A stretch of 64,000 nt of DNA from Nitzschia sp. pyKryTriq1. Taxonomy: Eukaryota; Bacillariophyta; Bacillariophyceae; Bacillariales; Bacillariaceae. Shown here in pieces: positions 6,094 through 26,735 of this stretch. Under the pieces are notes generated by a model. The model saw only the letters and a list, made by a program, of their open reading frames with translations. It was not told where the DNA came from and ran no database searches. The first letter of the stretch is position 1. Each line of letters opens with the position of its first letter. Position numbers and translations under genes: made by a program. The stretch covers positions 2,404,629 through 2,468,628 of the forward strand of contig OY101119.1 in NCBI GenBank assembly GCA_956465555.1, in the 5' to 3' direction.

Positions 6094-7857
6094 ATGTTGC
6101 AGAATCTGAAAGCACTCTTCCCACAGAGTTGGATCGAAAGATTCCAAAAGATGGACGACGATGCCTCCGTATTCGAAAACGAGCCACGTCGTCAAGATTG
6201 GAGTGTGAGCAACAATGACTCGGTTTTCTACGATGAAGGGAAGCCAGATAAGAAATCGGATCTTATGAAATTTTCTGGACGATACCTTGGGCCAGATAAG
6301 CTCATTGTGATCTTTGCCCTTTTGGGTATGGGATCCATTCTCTCCGCCTCCGTTCTGGCTTTTTACAAGTGGGGACCCACGTCTAATGCATCGGCAAACT
6401 CAATCACACCGGGTACGCCTCCTGTGGTCGATACGTCCACTGAGCCACCCCTTCCTTGGAAGACTCTAAGTCCCACAAATCCCCCCATCACCTGGGTAGA
6501 CGTGTCGACACCACTTCCAACTGGTGCAACCACCCGCCCTCCGCGTCCTCCAAGCACAGAACCACCTGCTAGCGAGGAAGCCAGGGCGACTCCAGATCCA
6601 ACTCTTTCAGCCACACTTTCTCCAACTGATCGTCCCACACGGCAGCCCACCAATCCGGCCACGTCCTCACCGACCAAAGCACCAACGGATCGTCCAACAG
6701 CAGAGCCGACAGTGCCACAAGTAACAGCGCCAGGCTACATGCCAGGCAACCTAACTACTCTGAAGCTCGGTTTGCTTCTTTCCGAGGGACTAGACGCACG
6801 CATATTGGCCATTAGAGACCAAAATGTTCCTTATGATCTTGGTGGCTGGTCTCCAGAAACGTTTCACGGCCAGCCAGACGGAGGCGCTACTTTCCCCGAT
6901 CAACGCAGTAATAATCCAGGAGGCTGGATTTATGTGAGCAACTCCGAGATTGAGCTTGGGCAGGGTGGCGTTGGAGCTTTTACATTCGACAAGGACGGTA
7001 ATGTCATTGACTACCGTATGCTTTTGAAGAATACGAGCATGAATTGTGGAGGAGGACGAACACCCTGGAACACCTGGGTCAGTTGCGAAGAAGTCGAATC
7101 TACTGGCTTGATCTACCAAGTAGAACCTACCGGGGAACGAGAGCCAGAGGTCATTACCTTGGGAAGTGATGGAGGTCGCTGGGAATCCTTTGCCTACGAT
7201 ATCCGTGATCGGAAGATTCCTCGCTTCTTTGCCACCGAAGATCATAGCAAAGGAACTGTTCGTCGATTCACACCCACTTCGCCGAACTGGGATGACCCAT
7301 GGAGCATTCTTCACGGTGATGGCGTTACCGATTTTCTTATGATTTTCCCAAACCAAACTGTGAACGGTGGTACTTTCAAATGGACGAACGACAAAGAAGC
7401 GGCGAAAAACAATGCCAAGATGTATTATCCCATGACGGAAGGCATCGACATCTACGAGGGTCAAATGTTCGTTACTTGCAAACTAATCAAACAGCTATTC
7501 GTCTTCGACTTGGATAGCTTCACCTACTACAATCACACCACATCAAATGGACTATTCGACGGAAAGCCTGACCAGATAAAGCGGGTTGTTGGTGACTCGA
7601 AAGATTTGCTATACTTCACAGAAGAAGGCGGTGTCGATGCAGGTGTCCATGCTCGGGATCATCTTGGCCGATTCTTTACCGTCTTTGAAAGCCCCGTGTA
7701 TCCTGACGAAACAACGGGACTCTCTTTTTCTCCAAACGGTCGATTTATGTACACCGCATATCAAGATTCAGGATTTTTGTATGCGATATGGCGCATCGAT
7801 GGACTTCCATTCCATGCTGCACACCTGGACGTGAAGTTTCATCACACGTCATCCTAG
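6094..7857 (+). CDS. Membrane-anchored PhoX-like (DUF839) protein
   Basis: Intronless 587-aa ORF. Order: short cytosolic N-terminus; one membrane helix at ~69-91; a Thr/Pro-rich stalk at ~95-215 with repeated SPT/RPT motifs; then a PhoX/DUF839 beta-propeller-like domain from ~218 to the end. The PhoX metal-site motif NCGGGRTPW...SCEE is intact, with the Cys at about residue 318. Bacterial PhoX enzymes are Ca/Fe-dependent alkaline phosphatases that release phosphate from esters, so extracellular phosphomonoesterase activity is inferred. A secreted paralogue lies at 20494-22098 and shares the long stretch from YQPGNLTTLK/MPGNLTTLK onward. A later ATG at 6151 is possible and would not alter the anchor. 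Its neighbours include phosphate-binding and polyphosphate genes. Confidence 0.85.
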   Translation: MLQNLKALFPQSWIERFQKMDDDASVFENEPRRQDWSVSNNDSVFYDEGKPDKKSDLMKFSGRYLGPDKLIVIFALLGMGSILSASVLAFYKWGPTSNASANSITPGTPPVVDTSTEPPLPWKTLSPTNPPITWVDVSTPLPTGATTRPPRPPSTEPPASEEARATPDPTLSATLSPTDRPTRQPTNPATSSPTKAPTDRPTAEPTVPQVTAPGYMPGNLTTLKLGLLLSEGLDARILAIRDQNVPYDLGGWSPETFHGQPDGGATFPDQRSNNPGGWIYVSNSEIELGQGGVGAFTFDKDGNVIDYRMLLKNTSMNCGGGRTPWNTWVSCEEVESTGLIYQVEPTGEREPEVITLGSDGGRWESFAYDIRDRKIPRFFATEDHSKGTVRRFTPTSPNWDDPWSILHGDGVTDFLMIFPNQTVNGGTFKWTNDKEAAKNNAKMYYPMTEGIDIYEGQMFVTCKLIKQLFVFDLDSFTYYNHTTSNGLFDGKPDQIKRVVGDSKDLLYFTEEGGVDAGVHARDHLGRFFTVFESPVYPDETTGLSFSPNGRFMYTAYQDSGFLYAIWRIDGLPFHAAHLDVKFHHTSS

Positions 7858-9173
7858 CTGCTTTGGAGCGTCGGCGAGACAGCCTTGTATTCAGGCCAGA
7901 ATTTGAATACTGTAAACTTATTTTTATCAGACTCTACTAGTATTGGCGTTTTGTTAAAGCCACCATCTTGTCCACGAAGCCTTGTTGTCTGGCATCGTAT
8001 CCATCCCGTCCTCATCATACCTGTACAGTACAACCCAGCACTATTCAGTCTGGCAGTCTAATACTAGTACTCGTAGAGCAAGAGCCCAATGCCCCTCTGG
8101 CGAATTGGGTTTCATTCTAGGTCTAGTACTCTACTAACATCGTAAAGCAGCGAAAAAGTGCACTATCTAATTTAGTTACTAACGTGGAGAGAGAGAGAGT
8201 AGAGCTACCGTAAGTGATAAGTATTAGCCACCGAAGTGTTTTACATGCATTCCCTTCCCCGGCGATGGTACGCCCAGTAGACTATTGTAGAATTGAGAGC
8301 AGGTCGCCAAACCATGCTTGGGCCTTCTTGCTTCTTCGCCAGTTTATTGCTGCGCAGATGCGAAGACAGCAACAAACGATGATCGTTAGTTGACCATTCT
8401 CATTTCGAGGACCGGTACCGGTACAGTATTGTTAGGTCGTAAGGACGGTACACGTAGTACGAACTACCAATTAGTACTGCATCGTAGCCGCGCTCGCCCC
8501 GGCGAGTCAAGAAGCCCCCGCCCGCAGTATTCGTACCAGGTACCGGTACTTGTACCTGGTATCGGTACGAGTGAGTATTAGCCGCTACTGTCTTCCGTAC
8601 CGGTACGATTACCGGTTACATACCATACGGTACCTGCTACCGGTACCTGTACCGTACTGTAGAGCTGATCGATTGCAGCAATTTGCGGCACAAAATAAAT
8701 GCGAACACACCCAAAACTGTAACATGCATTTACAGATAGACAGTACCAGTACCGTACCAGGTAGTAGTGCGTTGTTGAAGGAGGTACCAGTACCCTGATA
8801 CTGGTGGGGATCGGATCATGTGTGTGGACGAGAACAGTGAACGGTCGGTTTGATTACTGAATGAAGGCGGTTGTAATAGCGCATTCGGGAACGAAGAATA
8901 ATTCTGTCATCCCTAATTGTTCATTCAAGCAACGACACAACACAGTTCAGAATCGCTTATAGAAACGGAGGGAATCATTCCAAAGCAAGCACGCAACCAT
9001 AAAATGTCAATTTATGCGTGATGGATCCAAAGGATGATTGATTCTGGATCCATCCCGCCCATCATGTTTGCGAACGTTCATCGAAAGGCGATGCCGGGCA
9101 ATTTCCAATTCATCTAATACCGAAGCCTCGACATAAAATCGATGAACAAACCAACAAGAATATTATTACAGAC
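7858..9173. other. Intergenic region with dense GTAC-palindrome island
   Basis: No convincing coding frame. The part from about 8405 to 8780 is crowded with GTACCGGTAC/CAGGTACC-type strings. The 400 bases before the next gene are more ordinary and probably hold its promoter. Confidence 0.6.
8405..8780. repeat. GTAC-rich palindromic island
   Basis: Repeated short variants of GTACCGGTAC, CCAGGTACC and GTACTGTA in both orientations. They are not a strict tandem array. The same signature recurs in many intergenic regions of the window. Confidence 0.7.
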
Positions 9174-11553
9174 ATGATGTTGCTCTCTCCTTTGGCATTC
9201 TTTGCCCTGCTGTCCTCTTTGGAACTATGTCTTCTACCAGCCGTTTCTGGGTCAGCGACAGCAGAATCTGTGGTGGATCCTACCCTGGTAACTTGTCCAC
9301 CTGAAGACGTTACCCTTGCTATGGCCGGCACCAGAGCGGGGAATGAGCTTGCAGACGCCTGGCAGAAAGTTTACTCGACAAAGCACTGTCCTGGATTCAA
9401 TGTCACGTTCCAAACGAATTCATGGGACTCTGGAGCAGCAAGGGTGTGTGGAAGTTCCTTGCTCTATAACCCTGTCGACCTGGCGAGTATGTCAGGTACC
9501 TTCTTCCTTCCTCAAGCCACCACTTCCGACGGCTGGAGCTTTGAGTGCAAGCATTCGAAGCTAGAACGAAAAACTATGTTGGTACGTTATGAGTAGAACA
9601 CTTGCTTCGTAATATTTGCTGCTTTGTGTCGTGCAATTCCCCAAAATGGCAAAACTCACAATCTTTCTTTCGATACGATTGATTCCGAAGTTGCATGTCG
9701 CTCAGCGAGGAATCAGCCTAGGAACAAAGAAGCGTGGTACAGCAGCATCTTGCTTGGAGCTGCTTGGTGGTGGACTGACCAAGGACCAGCTTAGGTGGAT
9801 GTACTCTGGATTCGGTACCAAGCAACTCATCGCGTCCGGGTGGGACCCATTATCAGTACCATTTCTGGACGAAGATGATACTACCCACTTGTGGAGCGAG
9901 ATTCACGAGAACTGTACCGCCGAGGAGATCTCGGTATCACTCGAGGACCTTGGACACGGTGACGCGTATGACTATTTCCGTGAACATATCCTTACCAGCC
10001 GAGGCGAGTCAATGAGAGATCACTTTGTTGGTCTCTCCAACCAAGCTATAGACGAGTACTTGGACGCCGATAGTGCAGCAATCTCTTTCTTTCACCTCTA
10101 CGATATGCTCTCCAAGGAATATCAGGAACGAGGTCTATTGGCTGTCGGAATCAAAAACGAACACGGGGATGTCATTATGCCCTCTGCCAAGTTTTTTGAA
10201 AGTGGATCCTATCCATTTATGAAGAAGGTATACCTCGGATTGGTCAACGATCCGGTAGCACTCGAGTCCACTCGCCCATTTTTGGAATTCGGTCTTTCTG
10301 ATGAAGGCACCCAGATCCTTCTCGAAATGGGAGACTGGCCTATCCAGGATTGGGAGAAGCTAGCCATGTACACCCGTTTGGGCTCTGAGCAGGGCCTCGA
10401 AATCGAGACAATTCAAGAAAAGTGTGGTCCTTTGGACGGCGACCTTGAGATCGGAGGCAGTGACACTGTACTCCCAGTCATCAGTGTTTGGTCCGAGCTT
10501 TACTTGCTTGGGTGCCCAATGAATATTGATCTTGAAGGAGGAGGCAGTAGTCTTGGAGCTCGCCGTATCTGCGCCAGCTCTGAGTCTGGTGATTCTGTTG
10601 ATGTGGGCATGATGTCAAGAGATTTCAATTGGGAAGAAGAGGCCATCCCACGAGCCAATAACAAATTCGTCTACGACTGCATTATGGAAGAGGGCGAAGA
10701 GAGTCGATCAGTCATTCAGATCGATGTCGCATTGGATGGTGTCAGTGTATTGTTCCCGATTGGTGGTACGGGAGAAAAATGCGTCCGCCTCCTCGGCGGC
10801 CTGACCATGGATCAGCTTCGCTGGATGTATTCGAGCTATTCTGACACTGACTTGCAGAACTCTGGTTGGGATCCCGAGAGTCTGCCAAATAGCGACTTTG
10901 ACCCAAACACTCACAAGTGGAGCGAGCTCGATTATCGTTGCGCGGACGAAGAAATTCAGTTGAGTGGGGACTACTGGGATGACGGGTCCTTCACCAGTTT
11001 CTCGAAGCAGCTCCTGAAGGACTATCACACAGGTGAACACATCGCGGATAAGCGCAAGAAGCCATACTTGGAAGTATATGGCTTCGATGCTCTAAGGTAC
11101 CTTCTGGAACACGAAGATTCGGTCTCGTACGTTGGCTACCACTACTACTTTGAGCACCAAGATGTGTTTTGGGCCGCTCCGATAGCCATTGATGCCAGTG
11201 CGTCCTTCGTCGCCCCATCCTTGGAAAGCATTTCGGATGGGTCGTACCCACTGACTCGCAGTATCTATGTGAACATCCACAACAACCATGCTGCGCTCCG
11301 AGACGCACTTCCCGTGATCAAGTTTGGGTATTCGAATCCCAGCTTGATACTTTCCAGCGGCTATGTACCGATCGTTGGAGACCACATGGAAGAAATGCTT
11401 GGCCGTTTGGACGGCGGCCCCTATGTGTTGCGTTTTGATATGGAAACGGAAGATTCCAGCAATAGGGTTGGCATCATTCTTGGAAGCATATTTGCAGCGA
11501 TGCTTGTTGTCGCTCTTATCATTGTTGTAGTCTATTTCTATCGCAAATGGTAA
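9174..11553 (+). CDS. Tandem PstS-like phosphate-binding protein with C-terminal membrane anchor
   Basis: Two exons, 9174-9581 and 9691-11553, joined by a 109-bp intron (GTACGT...GAAG) in phase 0; 756 aa. A signal peptide (residues ~1-26) is followed by two successive PstS/PBP-like substrate-binding modules. Each has the typical LGG(G)LTxDQLRWMYS motif, around residue 155 in the first and around 500 in the second. The second module also shows GGSDTVLPV and GGGSSLGARR, matching the phosphate-contact loops of PstS. A membrane helix (~730-752) and YRKW end the protein, so both modules should face outside or into a lumen. The exon join was chosen because it restores the strand ...TMLLHVAQRGISL, which aligns with VIQIDVALDGVSVLF of module two. 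In bacteria PstS feeds an ABC transporter; none is seen here, so a role as phosphate scavenger or sensor is inference. Confidence 0.85.
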
Positions 11554-12303
11554 GAGACTTCAATAAGTCAGGCGTTTGTCGATTTGAAGAAAGTGTACGG
11601 CACTTTTGTTCATGCATGATGATGATTTGCACATTAAGTTTATTCGAAGCCATGCATCTTTACATTAACAACGAGTAGATGATAAAACAATTCCATTTTG
11701 TATGCAAAACAACAATCTTCCTCTACAACATGAGCATTACTCGTACCAGTATCTACTATCTTTTCTTTCCTTCCACCAACTCGCTTTCAAGAAATAATAG
11801 TACCTGGGTACGAGTACTGTACACGTACTGGTACGCACGCCGCCGGTGCCGATGTCTCGACCTCATCGACTCAACACTCGCATCCGGCTCCCCCGTGCTG
11901 GCGAATCTCCAGTGAATCCGAAATGAATCTTTTTTACCGCTCGACCGCGCAGGCCCGCGCAGAGATGCATTTTTGCAGAGAGGATAGGAGTTGTTGACGT
12001 GGTGTACTCGTATGGTGTCGCATCTCCTCTGTTACGAGGTGGTTGTAATTAACACGGGTTTTTTCACGTATGTAGAGTTAGTACTGGTGGGCAATCTCCA
12101 ACCCGACGAGCTTCTCGAGATTCCCGTCGCGTTGGGATTTGCGACGACGGCGGGCGAAGAGCGAAGCACAACCTTCACTACAAGCAGTACCGGTACGGTA
12201 CATACCTGGTACCCTTCTTGTCTATCTTACTACTAGAGTATTCGTATTGACAACAGTTTCGAAAGAAGGTCCAGGTACCATTGCTTAGCACAACTCCTCA
12301 ACA
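11554..12303. other. Intergenic region upstream of VTC gene
   Basis: GTAC-rich strings lie at about 11795-11840 and 12185-12240. No gene is recognised. The bases just before 12304 are probably 5' UTR of the VTC gene. Confidence 0.5.
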
Positions 12304-14609
12304 ATGAAGTATGGAGAACACTTGAAAGCCAACATCGCCCCAGAGTATGGGGCTGCGGCGTACTTGAATTATTCGGAGCTTGATGGGATCATTCAAATGT
12401 TGGCAGAGATTTCTCCCAGTGGGTAGGTGGAAAGTAAATTGACCGCGGTTGTCATATTTTGTCTCATGAGTTTGAGTTGAATCTCATTCGTTGGTATTTT
12501 CTTTTGCTTTCTTTCCTTGCTTAGCGTTGACCTGGAAAATCGCCAAGTTTCGTTGACCACGCCACCTCAAACCAACGCTCGGGGACTTTTGATGGACAAC
12601 ACAACAGCGACGGAGGAGTCGTTCTTGAAGTTGATAGATGCAGAATTGACAAAGGTGGAAAAATTCACTCTAGAGAAGGTCACAGAGCTTCGACAGAAGA
12701 TCGTCGAAGCTGAGGGGATGGACAACAAGGAAAAGATCCGGAAACTAGCGGATACCATTGCTGACGATTTTTTGCGTGTGGAAAAGTATGTCAACCTGAA
12801 CTTTATGGGATTCCACAAGATCTTGAAAAAACATGACAAGAATTTGCCCAACAACCCATGCAAGGCCTTTTATGTAGGTCGGATGCACGGCCAAGCTTGG
12901 GTCCGCGGGGACTATTCCGATCTCGTCGTGCGCCTCTCCCAGATTTATGCTAAACTTCGTGACGATCATGTCGCTGCCGAGAACAAGGATGCCTCGCAGT
13001 CCTTCCTCCGATCGACAACCAAGTACTGGATCAAAACAGAAGATGTGAGCCGAGTCAAGTACTTTGTCTTGCGACATTTGCCGGTTTTTCTGCAAAAGAC
13101 ATCCACTGGTGAGAGCGACTCGCAGTTCACCAACTCCGTATACATTGACAACGACCAACTCGAACTCTACCATGGTCGTTTGGATAAGTCGCCTGGTGCC
13201 ATTGCTCTTCGTCTTCGATGGTATGGACCCGGTGATCCGAAAATGGTTTTTGTCGAGCGAAAGACACACAACGATAAGTGGACGGGGGAAGTTTCCGTAA
13301 AGGAACGCTTTGTGGTAAGTAGTGAAAATCACCTGAACGAACTAAATTGCCCCGTGGAAACGACCTTCTGAACTCACCAGCGTGCTTGCAGATTGACGCA
13401 TCGGAAGTGCAGTCGGTTATGAAGGGAACCTACCCTATCGAAGCAAAGAAGAAAGAAATGAGGGCGAAAGGAAAGTCCGAGCAGGAAGTTGAAGAGTGGG
13501 AGACTCTGGTGCGGGAAATCACTCAAGTGTGTGTCAGTAAACAGCTAGTTCCTACAGTTCGTACCCAGTGTATGCGAACGGCCTTCCAAATTCCTTTTGA
13601 TGCCACCGTTCGTGTGTCATTGGATACGAACTTGTGTATGATTTCTGAGCGTGGCTACGACTTACAAGATATGAAAGTTTGGCATCGCGACCCGTCTTGG
13701 ATTCTCGAACCAACTGACATCACTCGGTTCCCTCACGCCGTTCTCGAAATCAAGCTGGAGCTGAAGGGAGGAAACTTGACTCCACCCAAATGGGTTACTG
13801 ATTTGCAGAACTCGGGCTTGCTCTACGAATGCCACAAGTACTCAAAGTATTGCCATGGTTGTGCAGTGCTGCTTCCTGAGGATGTTCGCAGTGTTCCGTA
13901 CTGGGTTGACGACATTTCACTCCGTGAATCGATCGTTGCGTCTGGAGGTGGCCGTATTCTGGCGGATACCGACGTTGGCGTTGGGCCTGGTGCGAACCAG
14001 GTTTATAGCCACCTTTTGCCCTTTGGCGATGCTGCACACAATCGAAAGGATACGGCTGTGGGCCGAACACATGCCTCGAGTGCTGCGGCAAAAGGTTTCA
14101 TCGGAGAAAAGAGCACTAGCACGACGAACGGTTTCGATTTCTATGACAAGCCGGACGAGATCTATGGCGATGATGAGGAAGGGTGCTGCAGTTGGATGTT
14201 CCCCTTTTGCTCACGATACAACAGCTACGGAGAAGACCTCGTTGCTCCAACATCCATCCAAAAGATTGAGCCCAAGGTGTTCTTTGCAAACGAACGTACC
14301 TATTTGCACTGGTTGCACTACGCTGTCATCCTGTCGTCCATTGCCTCGGGTATTCTTGCATTTTCGGAACAGAATGGAGAAACCTGGGGAGAATTCTATG
14401 CTCTGGCGTTGCTACCTATTTCTCTAGGATTTTGTGTCTATGCGTTGCACACCTTCATGTGGCGGGCTGACCAAATCAGATCGCGTATTCCAGCTCGATG
14501 GGATGATCCCATCGGTCCCCTCGTCTTGGGATCTACTGTTGCACTGGTATTGACAATTAATTTCTTCACCAAGCTCTACGAAATTGCAACCAATGACGGC
14601 GAACTTTAA
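12304..14609 (+). CDS. VTC4-like polyphosphate polymerase (SPX-VTC-DUF202)
   Basis: Three exons, 12304-12422, 12525-13314 and 13392-14609, with introns of 102 and 77 bp; 708 aa, close to yeast Vtc4 (721 aa). Exon 1 supplies the SPX start (MKYGEHLKANIAPEYGAAAY), and KYVNLNFMGFHKILKKHDK completes the inositol-pyrophosphate-binding SPX domain. The tunnel-type VTC catalytic domain follows, with YIDNDQLELYHGR, LRLRWYG, VERKTHNDKWTGE, RTAFQIPFDATVRVSLDT and AVLEIKLEL, so the known basic and acidic catalytic residues appear present. The end is a DUF202 three-helix membrane domain (~590-705). The enzyme should polymerise ATP-derived phosphate into polyphosphate and move it into a vacuole or acidocalcisome, under SPX control by phosphate status. 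The joins restore a continuous family-like reading frame. Confidence 0.95.
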
Positions 14610-14742
14610 ATGTCACAATCGGCGCTCCTCTCTTACGGGAACCCGTGCGGTTTTAGCATGGCTTCTGGGTTTGATTTGCTGTATCTAATCTCATTTAGTT
14701 TCTAGTTAGCAATAGTTGAAGTTGTGAGCAGCTCTATTGTGC

Positions 14743-15229
14743 TCACATATCCCCTCGTTGGATTCCGTCTAGCATCATGTCTCTCATCTTGTCGACCGGT
14801 ACATGATAGGAATCGGTGGGCATGGATACGGTGGCGATGATTTCATTCATTGCTTGATCTAACTCTTCTGGTGTCAACTTGTCGGAAGCACCAATGGCAG
14901 AGAGGAAGGAAGAAAAGTCGTCCTTCTCCAGGAAATCGTCGTGGTTCTTATCGACGCCTCGTACGAACTCTTTTACATAGCGTTTTGGCCACGCGTCATT
15001 GAAACTGTATTGAAGGAAAATTAGACATGTTTAGATTGTTGTTGTTGTTGTTGTGATAGTAGTTGCCAATATCGTGTTAAGTTACTCACTTGGCAAGCCG
15101 GTATTCTTTGAGGACAAACTTGAACTTGTCCAACGCTTCGCTGGCAGTGGGAATGGTGGAAGCAAAGGCTCGGATCGATCCCCGGGAATGCCTTCCGAAA
15201 GTTGCTGATACACGAGCCAACCGAAGCAT
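14743..15229 (-). CDS. Small EF-hand-like protein with mitochondrial-type presequence
   Basis: Read by hand on the minus strand as two exons, 15090-15229 and 14743-15004, with an 85-bp GTGAGT...ACAG intron; 133 aa. The N-terminus (MLRLARVSATFGRHSRGSIR) is rich in Arg and Ser with no acids, typical of a mitochondrial presequence. The mature part has one EF-hand-like loop, DKNHDDFLEKDD (Asp/Asn at positions 1, 3 and 5, Asp at 12), followed by an amphipathic Glu/Asp-rich helix and the end IQRGDM. Both exons are short, which explains why a simple ORF search misses it. It is tail-to-tail with the VTC gene, 133 bp away. The specific function is unknown; calcium binding is inferred and the position-6 Gly of classical loops is replaced by Asp. 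Confidence 0.75.
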
Positions 15230-15985
15230 GCTATTCTTCTTGTCTTTTTTCTAGTAGTTGTTGTCTAAGTATATTGATGTCCTGAGTGATTGTTCTCATC
15301 CGACTCATTATCGTCTACTGTTTTTATGACAAGAGACCGAGGGATTGATTTTACATTCCAAGCAACCAGGCGTCGAACATGTTTTTCCTCGGATCAACAT
15401 CACTGATGATGGATGCTTGTCAGCATTGCGATCATCGGAGTGTCATGAATGGCCTCTTCGATGATGTTCAACGATGCATCGTCGTGTCAAAGACATCAAC
15501 GATGATGCAGATGAAAGCGAACGGACCGACTCCGACGACCCGATCCCTTTTTTATCCACGATCCCCGCCAGTGGTTCTCTGATCCCCGCCCAGCGCGCGG
15601 AGGATGAAAAAAGATTAGTGTTAGAGGTGTGCGTGTTTGGGGCGAACTGGCTCGCTTCCTATTCGTGGCGGGAAATTTTCCCGCGATTGTTGGACGACAT
15701 ACAGACGGTTTCTTCTTCTTCTTGCTCAAGCATCAAGGCAAATCCAGCACCCCCCAGCGCCCAGCGCTTCTTTCACGTCCCTGCGCTCGTCCCACTTGTC
15801 GACGATGATCATTCAATCTGGATGAAATCCTCCCAACTAGAGTATAGCTCCTGCTGTTTGTAGTATATGAGTAGTGGTGTTTGCAAACGGGATGATGATT
15901 ATTATTTGTACCTGCACTTTCGTCCTCTATTCCTCACATCATAATTATTATTGTATGAGCCTGCTGCCAGCATTTGAATTTGTAT
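15230..15985. other. Intergenic region, no gene seen
   Basis: Several open frames exist but all are short, compositionally biased and without homology I can recognise. The region is treated as non-coding. Confidence 0.5.
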
Positions 15986-17125
15986 TTACCATTCTATTCG
16001 CGACAAGTATTGCTTCGCGGTTTCATAGGTCGTCCATGAAATAGCCACTGCCGGCGTGTGCGACAGAATTCGAGGCGTCATGCCCCGGAAAAATCCTACG
16101 GCACCCTCTGTTTCGAAAATGCGAACGGCCGCTTGTCGCCATCCGGTCACTACGGCGTTTCCACTAGCCTTGATAGGGCAATGGTCGGGTGGTGCGGACC
16201 CAACCGAGCAGGCAGGAGTTAACTGTTGAGTCTGCAAGTATGTTTTGATCCGATCCAAAGGAGTGGTGGTCGCTGCCGCCAGCAGGCCTGCCAGAGCACT
16301 GCTGGCCAGGGTGACGCCCAAAGTAAGCTCTCCGTCGGACGTCCACTGCTTTTTACAAAATTCGTTGGTGCCCACCATCACTACACCGTATGGAATGTTG
16401 GTGGCAAGCGTTACTGGAAAACTTCGATACAGACTGACAACGCCTTCACTGGCAATCATCGTCGACAGAGCATCATAGAGGCCTCGGTAGTGCCCGAGCT
16501 GCAATCGTTGCTTTACCGTATCCAAAGGGCCCAGAATAATATCGTGCCCCGTGACCGCCGCTGCTCCCGCCAAGGCACTTCCATAGGTGGTAACATTGCC
16601 TTGCTCATCTAGCGTCGCAGCCTTGACGAGCTCGTAAGAACTAAAGTATAGTGCATGTGCTGGAATGCATCCAATCAAAATGGTTTGCACGCCTCGCCAC
16701 AACCGTGACAAGCCTGCGAGCTGCGCCAACGAAATGGTGCCATTACTGGAGGCCGCCGCCGTCGCAGTGGTAGAACTCGCCACACCTCCTTCCAGGGCCA
16801 GCGGTCCTTGCTGGTTCATCAGCTGCCGGATCGTTTGCCACATCCCCGTCGTTGCCTGAAAGGACGGAGACGCCGCCTTTTGCAGCAAACTGGCCTGCTG
16901 CTTCGCCATTCCCGAAGTGCCGCCAACCTTATTATTCGTGTTGATGTGACAAGCGGCGCAGACTTGAATATGGGTGCGGACCGTGTCCAAGGGGTAAACG
17001 AGTGTGTGTTCCGCGACTCCGGCCATACTACCAGCGGCGCAGTGCACCCAGAAGGGGCTAGAGCCATCCCATTCTTCCCATTCCTCCGGATCGATTGCTG
17101 AATTGGCCGTATCGTTGCTCATCAT
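15986..17125 (-). CDS. Mitochondrial carrier family protein, mitoferrin-like
   Basis: Intronless, 379 aa from the ATG at 17125. Three repeats of the carrier fold are present. The first has SMAGVAEHTLVYPLDTVRTHIQ, where AEHTxxYPLDxVRT resembles the mitoferrin group. The second has GPLDTVKQRLQLG, and the third has TTPLDRIKTYLQT and ends with HTPAVAISWTTYE, again mitoferrin-like. The inferred role is import of ferrous iron into mitochondria for heme and Fe-S assembly. There is a long low-complexity Ala/Thr/Gly insert between helices 1 and 2 (residues ~80-140). The carrier family is certain; iron as substrate is likely but inferred from motif resemblance. Confidence 0.85.
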   Translation of the reverse strand: MMSNDTANSAIDPEEWEEWDGSSPFWVHCAAGSMAGVAEHTLVYPLDTVRTHIQVCAACHINTNNKVGGTSGMAKQQASLLQKAASPSFQATTGMWQTIRQLMNQQGPLALEGGVASSTTATAAASSNGTISLAQLAGLSRLWRGVQTILIGCIPAHALYFSSYELVKAATLDEQGNVTTYGSALAGAAAVTGHDIILGPLDTVKQRLQLGHYRGLYDALSTMIASEGVVSLYRSFPVTLATNIPYGVVMVGTNEFCKKQWTSDGELTLGVTLASSALAGLLAAATTTPLDRIKTYLQTQQLTPACSVGSAPPDHCPIKASGNAVVTGWRQAAVRIFETEGAVGFFRGMTPRILSHTPAVAISWTTYETAKQYLSRIEW

Positions 17126-17603
17126 TTTCAATCAAAAGCTCAGCTGATTTTGGGTCAAGTCGTAATTGTTGTTGCGGTCTTGTAGTGTGTTCGGTTAGCA
17201 AGAAGGAAGAACAAAAGTCTCACGATCCACAGGCCCGAACTCTTTTCAAATAATGTTGTTTTCTGTTGTTGGCAGTTGGCTGCCGCCCTTCGCCCGTCCG
17301 TATAATATACCAGAAGATTGCATGCTAGCTGTTAGCTTGTCGCGACGGGAAGCGGCAGCACACGCACAAAAGCTGTCCGTGGCACGCAAAGGAATGGTGA
17401 GAATCTACGTAAGGTCTGGTACTCGTTCGAGAGGCTCTGTCTGATGGACGGAGCTACTGCTTGGCGGGCGAAAGAAGGCTTTTCGGGCGGAATGGCCTTC
17501 AGCACCGGTACTTGTAGTCTACCAATTCACCGTAGAAAGCTATGTATTGACCAAAGATGCGAACGCCGTTCAACGACACTCCCTCTCCGCGCGGATTTTC
17601 ACC
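17126..17603. other. Spacer upstream of carrier gene
   Basis: Presumed promoter of the minus-strand carrier gene, ending at the left TTAA of the transposon. No gene is recognised. Confidence 0.5.
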
Positions 17604-17607
17604 TTAA

Positions 17608-17619
17608 GGTGGATATGTA
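17608..17619 (+). repeat. Left terminal inverted repeat
   Basis: GGTGGATATGTA directly after TTAA at 17604-17607. It is the exact inverse of 20241-20252. Confidence 0.8.
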
Positions 17620-17847
17620 GCCTCAGTGCCATGGGCTGGAATTTTTGATTCCACGTGGCCAAAAAGGAATCCTCTATGATGGAACTCTCGCAATAGCAAA
17701 CCAAAAGGAAAAAGAATAATCAATAGAGATTCCATGATGAAATTTTTATATGTTATTCATGTACTAAGATAGAATAAAGTAGAAGACATAAATGGTGACC
17801 ATTGGTTGAACTTTCAGCAACGCGGGATTTCATTTCTCGCGACAAAT

Positions 17848-18357
17848 TTAGCGGTCGAAGTGCCCCATGTACTGCTCGTCCGGGTCGGGGTAGACCGAGC
17901 GGACGCCTGCCAAAATGCAGGGCGAAAGCTTCACGCGATTTCCGCGTCCCAGCGGTCCGAAAAGGTGCATCACAAGCTGTCGATAAAGCAGCTTGCGAGC
18001 ATGCGATCGGTCCGCTTTTTCGTCGTCGCGACGCGGCTCTTCGACCACATTGCACACAAAAGGGTAGACCTGGAGCCATTCGCAGACGACTTCACCACAG
18101 TCGTCACAGGCGAATGGCTCATCAGGCTCTGGCTCTTGCTCTGGCTCTGGCATGTCGGCCAAGTCAAATTGATCGAAATGATTATTCGCGAGAGGGGCGG
18201 CGGCGGCGGAAACGACGACGGTAGGTGCGTCTTGAATGCTGTTGTGTTCGACGCTGTTGTTGTTGTGGGCGTTGGCGTTAGCGTTGGCGTTAGCGTTGGC
18301 GTTAGCGTTAGCGTTGGCGTTGGCGTTGGCGCTGTTGTTATTATTCATGTTGCTCAT
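17848..18357 (-). CDS. Accessory ORF of the TTAA transposon, Cys/His-containing, with Asn-Ala repeat
   Basis: 169 aa from the ATG at 18357 (an alternative ATG lies at 18348). An Asn/Ala dipeptide run (about a dozen units) near the N-terminus is encoded by a hexanucleotide microsatellite. The conserved-looking part follows: a CDDCGEVVCEW zinc-ligand-like motif, then RKLLYRQLVMHLFGPLGRGNRV and PCILAGVRSVYPDPDEQYMGH. This C-terminal pattern reminds me of small proteins that accompany DNA transposons in diatom genomes, but I cannot name the family. Its position inside the inverted repeats, divergent from the transposase, implies a role in the element (DNA binding or regulation), which is inference. 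Confidence 0.6.
   Translation of the reverse strand: MSNMNNNNSANANANANANANANANANANAHNNNSVEHNSIQDAPTVVVSAAAAPLANNHFDQFDLADMPEPEQEPEPDEPFACDDCGEVVCEWLQVYPFVCNVVEEPRRDDEKADRSHARKLLYRQLVMHLFGPLGRGNRVKLSPCILAGVRSVYPDPDEQYMGHFDR
18264..18331. repeat. (GCGTTR)n coding microsatellite
   Basis: Tandem GCGTTG/GCGTTA hexamers that encode Asn-Ala on the minus strand. On the plus strand they create an artefactual Leu-Ala run. Confidence 0.85.
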
Positions 18358-18439
18358 GTTGATGTTATCTTTCTGTCTTTCTATCTTTCTTTCTGTCGTT
18401 TTCAGAAATAATAACAAACACACAACAATCAGTTATGTC

Positions 18440-19881
18440 ATGTCCATTTTCAACAATCCTTCATCCAATTGCTATGTGGCAAACATTTGTGCTGATGATG
18501 ATTCCAGTGCACCAGCACTATTGCGACATTCCTACAAAGATCTCCAAGAGCAACGAAACATACCTTGGCCCAGAACAGCAAGTGGTACAAAGAAGAAGGA
18601 CAATGGTCTACTACCACTTGATCATCCTGAAATACAATTCCAAGCTGACCACAATCACCGGTGGAACTGCCTTGCTGGCGACCTTTTCAAACTCTCTAGC
18701 AAGAAACGAAGTGAGACTACTATGCAACGAGGGGATGCTGAACGACTGAAGCACTATGCAAAAGCCTGTGGGCGCCAGCACAGACAAGATGGGGATTGGA
18801 AAGTTTTCAGATCAGGATTGTGCAACTGTTTGGAGCACCATTTTAATGAACATTCAAATTGTGGTGACTGGTGTCCCATCATAGCAAATGCTGAAGCACA
18901 GGATGACGATGAAGCAACAAAGGCAGCAAAGGCAAAACGCCGACAGAAAGGGAAATTAATTTACAGAAGCAAGACACGTGACAAAAAGCTCTATGATCAG
19001 TTGCTGGAGATTTTCAACAAATATGGCACAGAGAAGTGGTTGAAGGGTCTAATGCATGATAATGACTCCAACAAGGTGGAGGCTATGAATTCCAAGATTT
19101 GCCGTCATGTCCCAAAAGACCGCTACTATGCTACTACTATTGCAAGCAAAGGAAGAACACATTTGGCTATTCTTATTGATTCAGTTGGGTACTTGAGGTC
19201 ATCACAAGCTATATATGGATTTTTGGGCTTGACACTTGGTGCAGTTGATTCAGAAGGCATGCGGCGGAAAGATGTTCGAAAATTATTGAGAAAGAAGAAT
19301 TCGGAAAGTGTCAAAGAGAAAAAGGCGCGGGGGAGAAAGAAGCGCGAGAAAAGGAGCAACCAACGCGCAAAACTGGTCAGGGATCAAGAGAAGTCGCTGA
19401 CTCACGAACGAGGCCAAGGATCAACGGTAGCAACTGGAGGCGAGAATTTATGTGAATCTACTACCGGCACGAGTACTAGTACTGGTACTTCTACGAGTAC
19501 TGCGAGCACGGGCGCTGTCATGTGCCCTTTCTGCGGTTTGAGTGGACACAAAACAACACGTTCAAAGAAATGCAAACGAAACAACACAGTAATTATTGGA
19601 GAAGCGTCCTCGTCGCCTGGTGAGTTGCTGTTCGAGTTATTACGGAGTTTCGATTTCCACTGCGCGCTCAACTGCTCATTTGCGATTTTATTTGTGGTAC
19701 TCATACGTCGTTCAATTTGTGTACGAAACACACAGAGGGAATCCTGGACGACGCGCGCGAAGATTCTCCAGATCCACAGGACTCATCCGAATACAATTTT
19801 GGCGACGAGGATTCCGTTGAGATGAATTTGGCGACTGCTATGGAGCTCGACTCAATTCCTCTAGGAGACGAGGATGACTGA
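18440..19881 (+). CDS. Transposase-like protein (Mutator/Kolobok-type domain) with zinc-knuckle
   Basis: Two exons, 18440-19619 and 19736-19881, with a 116-bp GTGAGT...ACAG intron; 441 aa. The core reads HHFNEHSNCGDWCP, then NKVEAMNSKICRHVPKDRYY, the pattern seen in Mutator-like/Kolobok transposases. A very basic stretch (KKNSESVKEKKARGRKKRE) and a CPFCGLSGHKTTRSKKCKR zinc-binding motif follow. The second exon adds an acidic tail ending GDEDD, found by joining at the splice sites. The start is not secure: the CAG at about 18403 could be an acceptor for an upstream exon, and the protein is short for a Kolobok transposase, so the N-terminus may be missing or spliced on. Inferred activity is DDE transposition at TTAA targets. 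Confidence 0.65.
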
Positions 19882-20240
19882 CTCGGCATGTCGCCAAAAT
19901 TTGCAACTAGTTAGAACAGATACACATACAACTTTTCGCAACAAATCTTTGGTATTAGTAGCCGGGCATGCTACTGCTACATAGCTATCTGTGAATTTTG
20001 GTCCAGATTCACCTATTTGGATGGAGAGTGGAATGCCAATCCCATAACTAAAACTTTGGCCTGCGACCATATTTAGCATATGGATACGAATAAAGTTGAA
20101 TATTGAAAGTTTCAGCAATGTTGGATATTCATTGATGTAGAAGGGCATGATCGTCTAGCAAAATAGTTCGGACATTCTACGCGCACATGTACCAGAGTCT
20201 ACGTGTGACGTCAGCTTTTGGGCTATATTAGTACCCAGGG

Positions 20241-20252
20241 TACATATCCACC
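20241..20252 (-). repeat. Right terminal inverted repeat
   Basis: TACATATCCACC directly before TTAA at 20253-20256. It is the inverse of 17608-17619. Confidence 0.8.
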
Positions 20253-20493
20253 TTAACTGTATTTTTTTATTGTGGTGGGATCCAACTAGTCAAAAAGCGT
20301 GCAAAATCTCATTGTGGGCTGTGCGCTGTGCGCTGGAAATTTGTCGCACGATCGATCGTACATTTTCATTATTATTTTTTTCTTTTCGCCATTTCATTCA
20401 TCATTATTTTTTCTCGTCTTATCGGCATCGTGCTCGTCGAAAGATTCATCCTCGGCTCACAGACAGTGTAAAGAAGATCCATCCTTGATCAAG

Positions 20494-22098
20494 ATGGTAT
20501 CTTCACATTGCAGGATTTACGCTACAGTGATGCTTCTACAGGGGATCATCATTCTCTCAATAGTACCTGTACCGGTACTCTCGGTCGCCAATGCGGCCGC
20601 GGCGATGCTTTTGGACGAAGGAGAACGCTCGCTGGGAGCCAGACAGAGTGGTTGGAAACAAACACGATTTTTTTCGTTGACAACAGTTCCTCAAGAATCA
20701 TCACAAGTTCCCTCTGTACCTAGCAATGTTCCGAGTATGGAGCCAACGTTGAGCGCACCGCCAACGGTGAGCGCATCGCCAACTACCAACCCCTCTGTAT
20801 CGGCAATTCCTTCGTCGGAACCCTCCGATTCCTTGGCTCCCTCCTCTGTTCCCTCTAGTGCCCCGACGATGATGCCATTTGTATTATCCACACCGCCACC
20901 AGGACAAATTACCTACCAACCCGGAAACTTGACAACCTTGAAGGATTTGCTGTGGCTGTCGGAGGGGCTAGACAGCAGGTTGGTGGCACGCTCTGGGTTT
21001 CCCGTGGAGTATGGCGATGGCAGTGGTGTGTCCAATGCAACGTTTCATTTTCTTCCCGACGCGGCGGCTTGTTTCCCGGATACTCGACGAGACAATTTGG
21101 GTGGTTGGATATATGTCTCCAACTCAGAAATCCGATCGGAAGGGCAGGGAGGTGTTGGCGCCGTGACGTTTGACAAGGACGGCAAGGTAATTGATTACTA
21201 CATGCTCCTGGAGGGCACAAAATCGAACTGTGGGGGTGGCAAGACACCCTGGGGAACTTGGGTCAGTTGTGAAGAGACCGCAGCTGGAAACATTTATCAG
21301 GTCGATCCCACCGGGGTACGCCCTGCAGAGATGATGACTTTGGGCAGCGATATCGGATGGTGGGAATCCTTCGCGTACGATGTCCGGGACGAACAAGCCC
21401 CCTGCTTTTTTGCCACAGAAGATCAGCCAAATGGGGCATTGGCGCGATTTACACCCGATATGGAGGCATGGGCGAATTATTCCTCTACTACTAATAGTAG
21501 CTGGTCGAATTCCTCCGATGGAGGTGGCTTGCAATGGGAAATACTACACGGGCCAGGTGTGATCGAATATCTGATTCTGGAACCCGATCGAGCAGACGTT
21601 GACAGTGGCACGTTCTCATGGACCACAAATCGAATGTGGGCGAAATTGAATGCACTTATGTACTATCCCAGTACCGAAGGCATTGACGTCAACGACAACG
21701 AGTTGTACTTTGTCTGCAAGGGGATAAGAATGCTATACACTCTGGACTTGGACAGTGGCAACTACACTCGTGCGTCGACTCAGTCGGGTCTTTTCCAAGG
21801 AACTCCCGACCAAATCAAGCGAATCATTCAAGACGAGAACGAACTAATGTACTTTACTGAGGATGATGCAAAAAAGGCTGGGGTACATGCTCGTGACAGC
21901 CTCGGACACTACTTGACCGTGCTAGAAAGTCCAATCCTTCTCGGAGAGACGTCCGGCTTGGCGTTCAGCCCCGATGCGAGAATAATGTACGTGACCTATC
22001 AAACTATGGGTCGCCTTTATGCGATATGGAGGCGCGACGGCCTTCCATTTTATGGTACCCAGTTGGACTTGAAGTATCATGAACAGAATAATTCATAA
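20494..22098 (+). CDS. Secreted PhoX-like (DUF839) protein
   Basis: Intronless, 534 aa from the ATG at 20494. A hydrophobic signal sequence (residues ~10-35, ATVMLLQGIIILSIV) is followed by a Ser/Pro/Thr-rich linker (~75-130), then the PhoX domain starting at YQPGNLTTLKDLLWLSEGLD. The metal-site motif SNCGGGKTPWGTWVSCEE is intact, with the Cys at about residue 246. The protein is a close paralogue of the membrane-anchored copy at 6094-7857, differing mainly in its N-terminus (cleavable signal rather than internal anchor). It probably hydrolyses organic phosphate outside the cell. The transposon right end lies 238 bp upstream of the ATG, so the element sits within or next to the promoter region. 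Confidence 0.85.
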   Translation: MVSSHCRIYATVMLLQGIIILSIVPVPVLSVANAAAAMLLDEGERSLGARQSGWKQTRFFSLTTVPQESSQVPSVPSNVPSMEPTLSAPPTVSASPTTNPSVSAIPSSEPSDSLAPSSVPSSAPTMMPFVLSTPPPGQITYQPGNLTTLKDLLWLSEGLDSRLVARSGFPVEYGDGSGVSNATFHFLPDAAACFPDTRRDNLGGWIYVSNSEIRSEGQGGVGAVTFDKDGKVIDYYMLLEGTKSNCGGGKTPWGTWVSCEETAAGNIYQVDPTGVRPAEMMTLGSDIGWWESFAYDVRDEQAPCFFATEDQPNGALARFTPDMEAWANYSSTTNSSWSNSSDGGGLQWEILHGPGVIEYLILEPDRADVDSGTFSWTTNRMWAKLNALMYYPSTEGIDVNDNELYFVCKGIRMLYTLDLDSGNYTRASTQSGLFQGTPDQIKRIIQDENELMYFTEDDAKKAGVHARDSLGHYLTVLESPILLGETSGLAFSPDARIMYVTYQTMGRLYAIWRRDGLPFYGTQLDLKYHEQNNS

Positions 22099-24133: not shown

Positions 24134-24787
24134 ATGGCAGCAGTATTGTGCGGTACAGTGGGAGACCTCTTGAAAGGGTGCTGTGATGGAATTGGAAAAG
24201 TTATTACTTTGCCTTGCCGAGCATGCGGATGTGCTTGCAATACTTTCGGAGAGCTTGTCATGAGCCCTTTCTTTCCCTACCTCGCTCTTACTTTCGGTTT
24301 GAACTTACCTGGTGTATTTTACGCAATCAAGAGTTTACCGCTCGATTGCGCTGGCTTATCCGGTTGGCTCCTTGGGAATGGTATCCTTTGCTTGATACAC
24401 ATGGTGGCGGCCATGTACATTGTCAACAAGATCCGCGAAACTCCACCTTCTCTCAGGGATCCAATCACCAAGACTGAAGATACCGAAGCAGCTTCCACCA
24501 GCTATGGAAACTTTACTATTCCCAAGGAGAACGAGAATGGAGCCGCCAACTCTTTCGCTCGTATCAAGTATGTGCTTTGCTACGACAAAACGATGGCGGT
24601 GTACATCGTCATTTTCATTGGGTGGATCATATATCTTTCGACTGGTATCGCCAAGCGTCTGAATGCTGGTGAAGATGGTGGATGTGGCAATGAAATCCAA
24701 TACATGAATGTTGCCATCAGTTGTGGATATATGTACCTCAGCATGGTCTTTATGGCGTTTGGGTGCTCCCTCTGTTGCCTTCGCTAG
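24134..24787 (+). CDS. Four-helix membrane protein, paralogue A
   Basis: Intronless 217 aa. A Cys-rich N-terminus (CCDGIGKVITLPCRACGCAC) suggests palmitoylation or metal binding. Four hydrophobic segments follow: ~50-70, ~79-100, ~155-173 and ~190-213. A polar loop carries Ser/Glu/Asn between helices 2 and 3, and LCYDKTMAVYIVIFIGW is the most conserved part versus the neighbour at 25189-25842. The family is not one I can name. The pair look like an ancient tandem or inverted duplication: both are exactly 217 aa, share the helix layout and the LCYD...W..WLS/YLS-G motif, but differ widely elsewhere. Confidence 0.75.
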   Translation: MAAVLCGTVGDLLKGCCDGIGKVITLPCRACGCACNTFGELVMSPFFPYLALTFGLNLPGVFYAIKSLPLDCAGLSGWLLGNGILCLIHMVAAMYIVNKIRETPPSLRDPITKTEDTEAASTSYGNFTIPKENENGAANSFARIKYVLCYDKTMAVYIVIFIGWIIYLSTGIAKRLNAGEDGGCGNEIQYMNVAISCGYMYLSMVFMAFGCSLCCLR

Positions 24788-25188: not shown

Positions 25189-25842
25189 CTAGCAAAGCGA
25201 TGCCAATCCAGCAACGACCACAAATCCAACATACACAAAGCCACATACCAGCGACGTTTTCATGTAACGCTCATGATAGACCATGCAACCTTCGAATTGT
25301 TCCTCCTCTTCCACGTCAGCCATCTGCAGCACCCGTTGTGTGCCTTCGGAAAGCCAGAAAACCCAAAAGAGAAATAAAATCGCGTAGGTAGTAATGATTC
25401 CATCATAGCACACCAAATGACGTATTCTATCGCTGGATGTAGTCCGCATATGAATCAGGCGGCTAAAACACCCAGATTTTGCCCGGGCAGCAGGTGGCGG
25501 TGGAGAGGGGTCTGTTATTGTGACTTCGTCCATTCCTCGATGATGATTATTCGAATTCGAATCCGTGTCGGAGTCACCCTTCTCAGCATCTTCTTCTGCC
25601 TCATCAGTCCTACTAGAACTTTGTCTCGGTCTCGCAACCTTACGAATTTTGTACACGCAATAGATCGCCGCAATAATATTCAAGCCGGTCAGAGCGGCAT
25701 TCCCAACCAACCAGTTCGAATAGTAATTGCACCACTCTACGAAACCCAACACTCCAAAGACTAGTGGTGGAAAGTTGAAGCCTCCAGCCGTGATGAGAAA
25801 CAGTGGGTGGCATATGTACTCATATTTCGTCAAAGCCGTCAT
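25189..25842 (-). CDS. Four-helix membrane protein, paralogue B
   Basis: Intronless 217 aa from the ATG at 25842 (MTALTKYEY); the longer upstream frame has no ATG. It shares with paralogue A a membrane segment after the N-terminus, NWLVGNAALTGLNIIAAIYCVYKIRK (cf. GWLLGNGILCLIHMVAAMYIVNKIRE) and the LVCYDGIITTYAILFLFWVFWLSEG block. It lacks the Cys-rich N-terminus of A and has a longer acidic/Asn-rich loop with a Pro-rich patch. No function is known. It is divergent from the propionyl-CoA carboxylase gene. Confidence 0.75.
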   Translation of the reverse strand: MTALTKYEYICHPLFLITAGGFNFPPLVFGVLGFVEWCNYYSNWLVGNAALTGLNIIAAIYCVYKIRKVARPRQSSSRTDEAEEDAEKGDSDTDSNSNNHHRGMDEVTITDPSPPPPAARAKSGCFSRLIHMRTTSSDRIRHLVCYDGIITTYAILFLFWVFWLSEGTQRVLQMADVEEEEQFEGCMVYHERYMKTSLVCGFVYVGFVVVAGLASLC

Positions 25843-26735
25843 GGTCCATTCTCTTCGGCACTTGTGCCCCTGGTTTGTTGAGAGTAATAGGTTGAGGTAG
25901 TAGGTACCGGTACTCGTGGCGGGAGTCTTTTCAACGGCACACACTACCGGTAAACTACTACCGGTAGTATTGTAGACAAAACAAAACACGCAAACGCATC
26001 GCAGTCCGAGTTTTTCTTCTCTCAAATGTTTTCGTGTTTTCTGTCGCGCGGTCTTCCCGGTCTTCCGCCCGCTCGCCGGTCGGTGACTTGCCCGCCAGTA
26101 CCAGTACCAGTACGATACTTGTACCGGTAGCAGTCGTCATTATTATTATTCTCAACACAGAAGGCGGGACACGTCGCCGACTAGCTGGCTCGCTCGCTCA
26201 AAAGGGGAACTAACGAACAATGGCGGACAGAATAAATTCCCGCCGTCTGTGCCAAGCAAGTCTGTGCTGGTCCGTCCCCTTGCCTCGAGAAGCGACCGAC
26301 CGTGAAATGCGAACGCCCTTTCCCATTCCTTCGGCTGCGCGCGAGCATACGAGCACGTATTCAACAGTACTACCGGTACGCTCGTCCCGGTACCGTACTG
26401 TACAGTGTGTGCACAGGCGGGAGAAGAACAACAGCAAAATCCATCCGCAGCGACGCTTCTCAAGCATGACATGTGTTGAGTGTTCGCTTTCCTCTGGTCC
26501 TGTTGTTCCGCCTCCACAACTCATCGCAGCAGCGGAATTGCACCCAGCAGTTTTGCAATAGATTGCTACTCCGAAGCACGCAGCAGCTTCAAACCGAACC
26601 TTCCGACGAAAGTCCAGTCGTCCGAAAGGAAGAATCTTATCATACCAACCCCATAAATCTATTCGACCGCTTTACTAACAACAACATCATCATTTCTTCC
26701 GAGCCCTTCGTTTTTGGAAATTACATCATCGAACC
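25843..26735. other. Divergent spacer with GTAC-rich strings
   Basis: GTACCGGTAC-type clusters lie at about 25900-25975, 26095-26130 and 26370-26405. No coding gene is recognised. It contains the presumed promoters of paralogue B and PCCA. Confidence 0.55.

What the first reader, a model, noticed from the sequence alone, without database searches (positions are those of the whole stretch)
6094..22098. Phosphorus-themed gene neighbourhood in a eukaryote
Two PhoX-like phosphatases, a tandem PstS-like binding protein and a VTC polyphosphate polymerase lie within 16 kb. Together they could form a path from extracellular phosphate ester to free phosphate, capture at the surface, and storage as polyphosphate. 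Functional clustering is unusual in nuclear genomes of algae. The motifs are seen in the sequence, the family roles are established, and joint regulation is inference.
Basis: partly seen in the sequence, partly recalled or inferred. Interest (0 to 1): 0.75.

Follow-up and report, generated by a model that had tools for sequence, protein, structure and literature searches.

The report
Phosphorus gene neighbourhood in an alga
Three neighbouring genes plus a fourth nearby, all from families that free, bind or store phosphate, sit together in an algal nuclear genome more tightly than chance predicts, but nothing yet shows that they are switched on together or kept together in relatives.

Summary
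The four genes are real. PhoX1 (6094-7857), a tandem PstS-like protein (9174-11553) and a VTC4-type polymerase (12304-14609) are head-to-tail neighbours; PhoX2 (20494-22098) lies 5.9 kb further on, behind a mitochondrial carrier and a mobile-element-like ORF. I count 7 PhoX, 5 nuclear PBP and 2 VTC loci genome-wide (lower bounds). Random placement puts one of each within 8.5 kb in 6 of 1,000,000 trials, uncorrected for a theme chosen after reading. The PhoX pair is not a simple tandem duplicate: PhoX1 groups with a copy on another contig (97/96; sister pairing p-AU 0.036). PhoX2 models as a PhoX-type propeller and VTC keeps the VTC4 core. Capture is the weak link: no match to the Pst permease family (0 of 1 genome; 14 of 14 controls), and PstS-like domain 1 matches 1 of 8 recalled phosphate positions. 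Shared regulation gets no support: a P1BS-like site lies upstream of PhoX2 only, and no 8-mer is common to all four. Synteny in other diatoms and expression could not be tested. A PstS-kinase-cyclase ORF on another contig is a stronger lead.

The parts
6094..7857 (+). PhoX1: single open frame, 587 aa, N-terminal stretch, one hydrophobic segment (about residues 70-88), Pro/Thr-rich linker, PhoX-type domain from 6733; predicted surface-anchored phosphatase
   Evidence: PF05787 31.2 bits, cut-off 24; hydropathy; grouped with the C1 copy 97/96
9174..11553 (+). Tandem PstS-like protein, exons 9174-9581 and 9691-11553, 756 aa, hydrophobic N-terminus and C-terminal hydrophobic segment at about residue 731
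   Evidence: PF12849 38.9 bits; TIGR02136 E 4.4e-28 but under its cut-off; both domains hit in the own genome; hydropathy
12304..14609 (+). VTC4-type polyphosphate polymerase (SPX-VTC-DUF202), exons 12304-12422, 12525-13314, 13392-14609, 708 aa
   Evidence: Pfam; best PDB matches VTC4 chains 8i6v_E E 3.5e-90 and 7ytj_D E 2.2e-88; spliced
20494..22098 (+). PhoX2: 534 aa from this start (the frame is open from 20299), N-terminal hydrophobic stretch (signal peptide or anchor), Ser/Pro-rich linker, PhoX-type domain from 20911; predicted secreted phosphatase
   Evidence: PF05787 49 bits; model of 20911-22095 pLDDT 86.4, pTM 0.88; best fold match P. fluorescens PhoX 3zwu
15986..17131 (-). Mitochondrial carrier protein lying between VTC and PhoX2; belongs to the anatomy, not to the phosphorus theme
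   Evidence: PF00153 E 1e-53
18236..19825 (+). Mobile-element-like ORF between VTC and PhoX2
   Evidence: No Pfam family; 8 matches in the own genome incl. itself, 100% over query 332-529 on C6 and 97% over 325-529 on C3
31110..31521 (-). Decayed, partly deleted second copy of the PstS-like gene, including a stretch matching beyond its stop codon
   Evidence: blastn pieces of 87.6%, 73.4% and 76.5% identity against 10554-10642, 11145-11381 and 11530-11597; stops inside

Best explanation
This is a real local grouping of phosphorus-scavenging and storage genes: three adjacent head-to-tail genes (PhoX1, tandem PstS-like, VTC4) and a second PhoX nearby. Most likely PhoX1 works from the cell surface and PhoX2 is secreted, both cleaving phosphate esters as metal-dependent beta-propeller phosphatases. 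The freed phosphate enters through PHO4 or Na/Pi carriers encoded elsewhere, and VTC4 turns cytosolic phosphate into polyphosphate under control of its SPX domain. The PstS-like protein is a membrane-anchored binding protein outside any ABC transporter, acting through its second domain as a binder or sensor of phosphate or a similar anion. Shown: gene content, order, family membership of PhoX and VTC, no match to the PstA/C permease family. Inferred: substrates, topology, direction of flow. Not shown: common regulation, or that selection keeps the genes together.
For: Family matches; few members genome-wide: VTC 2 loci, PhoX 7 loci, nuclear PBP 5 loci (after dropping a LysR-like hit on C20 read by eye); 6 of 1,000,000 random placements at 8.5 kb; PhoX-type fold; VTC4 core; the PhoX pair is not explained by simple tandem duplication; no PF00528 match in the genome, 14 of 14 controls positive; carriers on other contigs.
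Against: The theme was picked after reading, so the small chance figure overstates the case; another themed pair, FabH next to a FabF-type gene, lies 12-16 kb before PhoX1. Regulation proxies negative. A mitochondrial carrier and a mobile-element-like ORF lie between VTC and PhoX2. The other phosphorus loci found (1 PHO4, 4 Na/Pi, 9 further SPX) are elsewhere. In P. tricornutum the VTC subunits were only moderately regulated, if at all, by phosphate limitation, and none of the 8 alkaline phosphatases in the paper's table is given a PhoX domain (PMC7283521, passages).
Confidence: 0.55

Rival explanations
1. Chance neighbourhood: gene shuffling in a compact genome put unrelated phosphorus genes side by side, and the theme was noticed afterwards. 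Each gene works alone.
For: Theme chosen after reading; FabH and a FabF-type gene also adjoin nearby; no common promoter word; a recently mobile element and a decayed local PstS-like copy show that the region rearranges.
Against: 6 of 1,000,000 placements for the three-gene core would need thousands of equally acceptable themes to become unremarkable.
Confidence: 0.3
2. A co-regulated phosphate-starvation cluster held together by selection.
For: Chance figure; same strand for all four genes; T. pseudonana raises two Vtc transcripts under P deficiency (PMC3315573, passage).
Against: P1BS-like site only upstream of PhoX2; no 8-mer common to the four 600-bp upstream stretches (random sets share 0.116 on average, so this is weak either way); VTC weakly regulated in P. 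tricornutum (PMC7283521, passage).
Confidence: 0.2
3. Local duplication explains the pair of PhoX genes (one old tandem duplication whose PhoX1 line later also moved to C1), and only the PstS-VTC adjacency remains to be explained.
For: PhoX1, PhoX2 and the C1 copy group together, though only at 87/75, among 6 of the 7 family members; local duplication of the PstS-like gene is visible.
Against: PhoX1 and PhoX2 are not each other's nearest relatives: PhoX1 with C1 97/96, sister pairing p-AU 0.036.
Confidence: 0.35

Closest known systems
PhoX alkaline phosphatase (PF05787; P. fluorescens PhoX, PDB 3zwu/4a9v)
   Same: Segment N-C-x-x-G-[KR]-T-P-W-[GN]-T-W-x-[ST]-C-E-E in both window copies; predicted fold of PhoX2, best match 3zwu E 7.6e-16, TM 0.72 on the query
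   Different: Shorter core (395 aa modelled against 580), surface or secretory N-termini with Pro/Thr/Ser-rich linkers, best Pfam stretch covers only about 25-33 profile positions, no NCBIfam match
Short bacterial PhoX-type proteins (e.g. gammaproteobacteria, actinobacteria)
   Different: The six aligned algal copies form one group apart from the 16 bacterial rows compared, so no sign of a recent transfer
Psip1 phosphatase
   Same: Described as PhoX-like in structure with Fe and Ca dependence, and present in diatoms (PMC11098088, passages and section 6)
   Different: Described there as having no overall sequence identity to PhoX; the window proteins do match the PhoX model. No direct comparison with Psip1 was made here
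PstS of the Pst ABC transporter (TIGR02136, PF12849)
   Same: Substrate-binding domain family, twice in one chain
   Different: Under TIGR02136's cut-off, two domains in one anchored protein, no match to the PstA/C-type permease family in the genome
VTC4 polyphosphate polymerase (yeast, 8i6v/7ytj)
   Same: SPX-VTC-DUF202 order; keeps the two Arg and one Glu at which the 7ytj chain differs from 8i6v in the printed alignments
   Different: Nothing notable in the sequence; in P. tricornutum the PtVtc4 fusion showed an endomembrane location (PMC7283521, passage)
Eukaryotic functional gene clusters (nitrate assimilation, diatom domoic acid; recalled, no call)
   Same: Neighbouring genes of one theme in a nuclear genome
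   Different: Conservation and co-expression are untested here

Membership tests
PhoX alkaline phosphatase | Score over Pfam's PhoX cut-off | tested here: met
   31.2 and 49 bits against 24
PhoX alkaline phosphatase | PhoX beta-propeller fold | tested here: met
   PhoX2 domain only: model pLDDT 86.4; the top two of 1419 matches are PhoX, the next E 3.6e-9. Psip1 is also reported as PhoX-like in structure, so fold alone does not separate the two
PhoX alkaline phosphatase | Iron/calcium-binding residues | tested here: inconclusive
   The NC..G.TPWGT....EE segment aligns with 3zwu 172-196, which holds Cys179 by count (its role as iron ligand is recalled); N106, C107, E121 and others are invariant in 37 rows; positions 292 and 385 named in PMC11098088 could not be mapped
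PhoX alkaline phosphatase | Phosphatase activity | not testable with these tools
   Needs enzyme assay
Psip1 phosphatase | Sequence match to Psip1 | not tested
   No Psip1 sequence or model was compared
PstS phosphate-binding protein | PBP domain of PstS type | tested here: met
   PF12849 over cut-off; PDB phosphate-binding proteins are the best matches, E 2.5e-5 with domain 2
PstS phosphate-binding protein | Score over the PstS subfamily cut-off | tested here: not met
   TIGR02136 98.3 bits against 206.6
PstS phosphate-binding protein | Phosphate-contacting positions of E. coli PstS (T10, F11, S38, D56, R135, S139, G140, T141; list recalled) | tested here: inconclusive
   Identical at 1 of 8 in domain 1 (G140) and 3 of 8 in domain 2 (S38, S139, G140), against 6 of 8 in own C11 and C9 proteins and 5 of 8 in the C2 protein; the alignment is uncertain for this subfamily
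Pst ABC uptake system | PstA/PstC-type permease (PF00528) | tested here: not met
   0 matches in the own genome, 14 of 14 control genomes positive
VTC4 polyphosphate polymerase | SPX + VTC + DUF202 | tested here: met
   All over cut-off
VTC4 polyphosphate polymerase | Catalytic residues | tested here: met
   Both Arg of RLRWYG, Lys of ERKTH, Arg of RTAFQ and Glu of VLEIKL are kept in the alignment to 8i6v_E; their catalytic role is recalled
Selected eukaryotic gene cluster | Closer than chance | tested here: met
   6 of 1,000,000 at 8.5 kb, uncorrected for theme choice
Selected eukaryotic gene cluster | Order conserved in relatives | not testable with these tools
   The tool states that this genome has no relatives held; three scans of viral contigs gave no relative
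Selected eukaryotic gene cluster | Common regulation | tested here: inconclusive
   Promoter proxies negative; expression not available

The most novel reading that the evidence does not exclude
This alga has turned PstS-type binding proteins, which have no ABC permease to serve here, into surface phosphate-binding and sensing devices, and keeps one of them in a selected scavenge-and-store cluster with PhoX and VTC4. A second, the PstS-transmembrane-kinase-cyclase protein on contig C2, would be a phosphate receptor, an upstream part of algal phosphate signalling.
Probability: 0.2. Interest if true: 0.75.

Novelty: new member of a known kind. Interest (0 to 1): 0.42.

Why it matters
Nutrient gene clusters are unusual in algal nuclear genomes (recalled). 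If this one is conserved it would give a compact locus for studying how an alga couples organic phosphate use to polyphosphate storage. PhoX itself is not new to algae: putative phoX genes are reported in green algae (PMC4548154, passage) and phoX was counted among photosynthetic eukaryotes (PMC11098088, passage), but it is not among the eight P. tricornutum phosphatases tabulated in PMC7283521. With no Pst permease found, the role of the PstS-like proteins is an open and testable question.

Tried and rejected
Viral origin of the cluster: scans of viral contigs with VTC, PstS-like and PhoX gave no relative (3 of 8 scans). Structure of PstS-like domain 2 from its single sequence: pLDDT 31.4, unusable. 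P1BS motif (GNATATNC, recalled) as shared switch: 15 in the window against 10.4 expected, one upstream of the four genes. Shared 8-mers upstream: none. A wider phosphorus cluster: an SPX-CitMHS gene lies about 20 kb from the PstS-receptor ORF on C2, and an SPX gene 29 kb from the PhoX pair on C14. The stretches between them that I fetched hold other ORFs which I listed but did not assign systematically (one, L111:6719-7372, had no Pfam match), so I make no cluster claim there. Rows dropped before counts: a weak PhoX match on C8 (E 6e-4, over the linker) from the PhoX count; a LysR-like hit on C20 from the PBP count, kept and left out; one of the two near-identical C14 tandem PhoX copies from alignments and trees. 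Of the 80 bacterial loci, 42 passed a 75% identity filter, 35 of these were long enough for the structure alignment, and 16 were hand-picked for the tree. Literature: 10 of 10 searches used. One search (diatom, VTC, PhoX, gene cluster) found 0 papers, and the 12 listed of 48 showed none on a diatom phosphorus gene cluster by title and start of abstract. The library is open-access only, so this is weak evidence of absence. Papers were seen as passages (PMC3315573, PMC8233357, PMC7283521, PMC3429862, PMC13187674, PMC4548154, PMC12981677, PMC9051505, PMC5768637, PMC8301168) or passages plus one section (PMC11098088); none was read whole.
Full report
What is there. The window lies in a 40.65 Mb, 20-contig genome at C5:2404629-2468628. 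Pfam confirms two PhoX-type ORFs, one PBP_like_2 ORF and split VTC, SPX and DUF202 matches. Splicing by eye gives a 756-aa tandem PstS-like protein and a 708-aa VTC protein. Hydropathy gives PhoX1 one internal hydrophobic segment near residue 70, PhoX2 an N-terminal one, and the PstS-like protein one at each end.

Is the grouping more than chance? VTC has 2 loci. PhoX has 7: two here, one on C1, three on C14, one on C12 (the Pfam model alone finds 4 places). PBP_like_2 has 6 loci, of which I drop the C20 one because it reads as a LysR-type regulator. The tool calls such counts lower bounds for large families. Counting the C14 tandem pair as one, random placement brings a PhoX, a PBP and a VTC within 16 kb in 22 of 1,000,000 trials and within 8.5 kb in 6 of 1,000,000; an earlier run with the C20 hit included gave 13 of 200,000 at 16 kb. 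Among 29 phosphorus-related loci from seven searches, the 5 cross-family pairs within 16 kb are all in this cluster, against 0.26 pairs expected. These figures ignore that the theme was chosen after reading. FabH next to a FabF-type gene, 12-16 kb before PhoX1 and just outside the window, shows that themed neighbours can be found elsewhere.

PhoX. Best by fold is P. fluorescens PhoX 3zwu, E 7.6e-16, TM 0.72 on the query, from a model of the PhoX2 domain with pLDDT 86.4 built on 37 sequences, two from the window and 35 from bacterial loci. By sequence only the signature segment aligns with PhoX. Most of the signature and several acidic positions are invariant across the 37 rows, but the individual metal ligands could not all be mapped. 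Psip1, another phosphatase reported in diatoms, is described as PhoX-like in structure but without sequence identity to PhoX (PMC11098088, section 6); I did not compare it directly. Six algal copies form one group (100/99) apart from 16 bacterial rows; within it PhoX1 pairs with the C1 copy (97/96), and holding PhoX1 and PhoX2 together is disfavoured (p-AU 0.036). So the two window copies are not a recent tandem pair.

PstS-like. It falls near TIGR02136 (98.3 bits) but under its cut-off of 206.6, and it is the genome's strongest match to that model. Of eight recalled E. coli PstS contact positions, domain 2 is identical at 3 and domain 1 at 1, while the C11 and C9 proteins keep S38, D56, R135, S139, G140 and T141 and the C2 protein keeps these but T141 (domain 2 may bind through subfamily-specific residues, and the alignment there is uncertain). 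No PF00528 permease was found in the genome, with 14 of 14 controls positive. A Pst uptake system is therefore excluded as far as that family search reaches. A decayed copy of the same gene, matching past the stop codon, lies inverted 20 kb away.

VTC. The protein matches VTC4 chains best (E 3.5e-90) and keeps the two Arg and the Glu at which the 7ytj chain differs from 8i6v in the printed alignments. By sequence it is an ordinary VTC4-type polymerase.

Regulation. P1BS-like GNATATNC occurs 15 times in the window, 10.4 expected, with one copy in the 600 bp upstream of the four starts, at PhoX2. No 8-mer is shared by the four stretches; random sets share 0.116 on average, so this test could only have given positive evidence. 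Literature seen as passages: two T. pseudonana Vtc genes rise under P deficiency (PMC3315573); P. tricornutum VTC subunits are only moderately regulated, if at all (PMC7283521); its table of eight alkaline phosphatases lists PhoA, phytase-like, PhoD-type and atypical PhoA, no PhoX.

Mechanism and verdict. The best reading is a grouping of scavenging and storage genes whose biochemical ends are credible and whose middle step is not a Pst transporter. Whether selection holds it together is open. Novelty is modest: a new member of the kind 'eukaryotic nutrient gene neighbourhood', built from known families.

A stronger lead outside the window. One uninterrupted 1142-aa frame on C2 combines a PstS-type domain (TIGR00975 E 2.8e-35, under its cut-off), a hydrophobic segment (by eye), a protein kinase and a class III cyclase (PF00211 E 5.3e-55). 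It is identical to E. coli PstS at 5 of the 8 recalled positions. In two paper searches no listed title or abstract start describes such a protein in diatoms. It would be a natural candidate for a phosphate receptor.

Noticed in passing
Own genome C2:3724341-3727766 (L013:1384-3543 followed by L114:1-1266): One open frame of 1142 aa: PstS-type domain (TIGR00975 E 2.8e-35), hydrophobic segment, protein kinase, class III cyclase (PF00211 E 5.3e-55); candidate phosphate-sensing receptor cyclase.
   Followed up: partly
Own genome C2:3703496-3705829 (L115/L111): SPX domain followed by a CitMHS-type transporter, about 20 kb from the PstS-receptor ORF.
   Followed up: partly
window 31110-31521 (-): Decayed, partly deleted inverted copy of the PstS-like gene including sequence past its stop codon.
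   Followed up: yes
L110:54-3652: FabH-type (ACP_syn_III) exons and a FabF-type ketoacyl synthase lie side by side in opposite directions, 12-16 kb before PhoX1 and just outside the window.
   Followed up: partly
window 18236-19825 (+): Mobile-element-like ORF without a Pfam family, with near-identical partial copies on C6 and C3.
   Followed up: partly
L021 and L022 (within C14:589028-598471): Near-identical tandem PhoX copies carrying repeated Cys-rich modules and a Pro-rich repeat before the PhoX domain; a third PhoX lies at C14:779661 and an SPX gene 29 kb away.
   Followed up: partly
window 33593-33751 and 34110-34268: Identical 159-bp direct repeat; a 92.6% repeat (229 alignment columns) lies at 38241-38455 and 38750-38976.
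   Followed up: no
window 45256-48414 (-), 49160-53500 (-), 59514-64000 (+): Three long related-looking proteins with one hydrophobic segment, Pro/Thr-rich linker and leucine-rich repeats (read by eye).
   Followed up: no
window 24134-24787 (+) and 25189-26025 (-): Two membrane proteins without Pfam match that resemble each other by eye, facing each other tail to tail.
   Followed up: no
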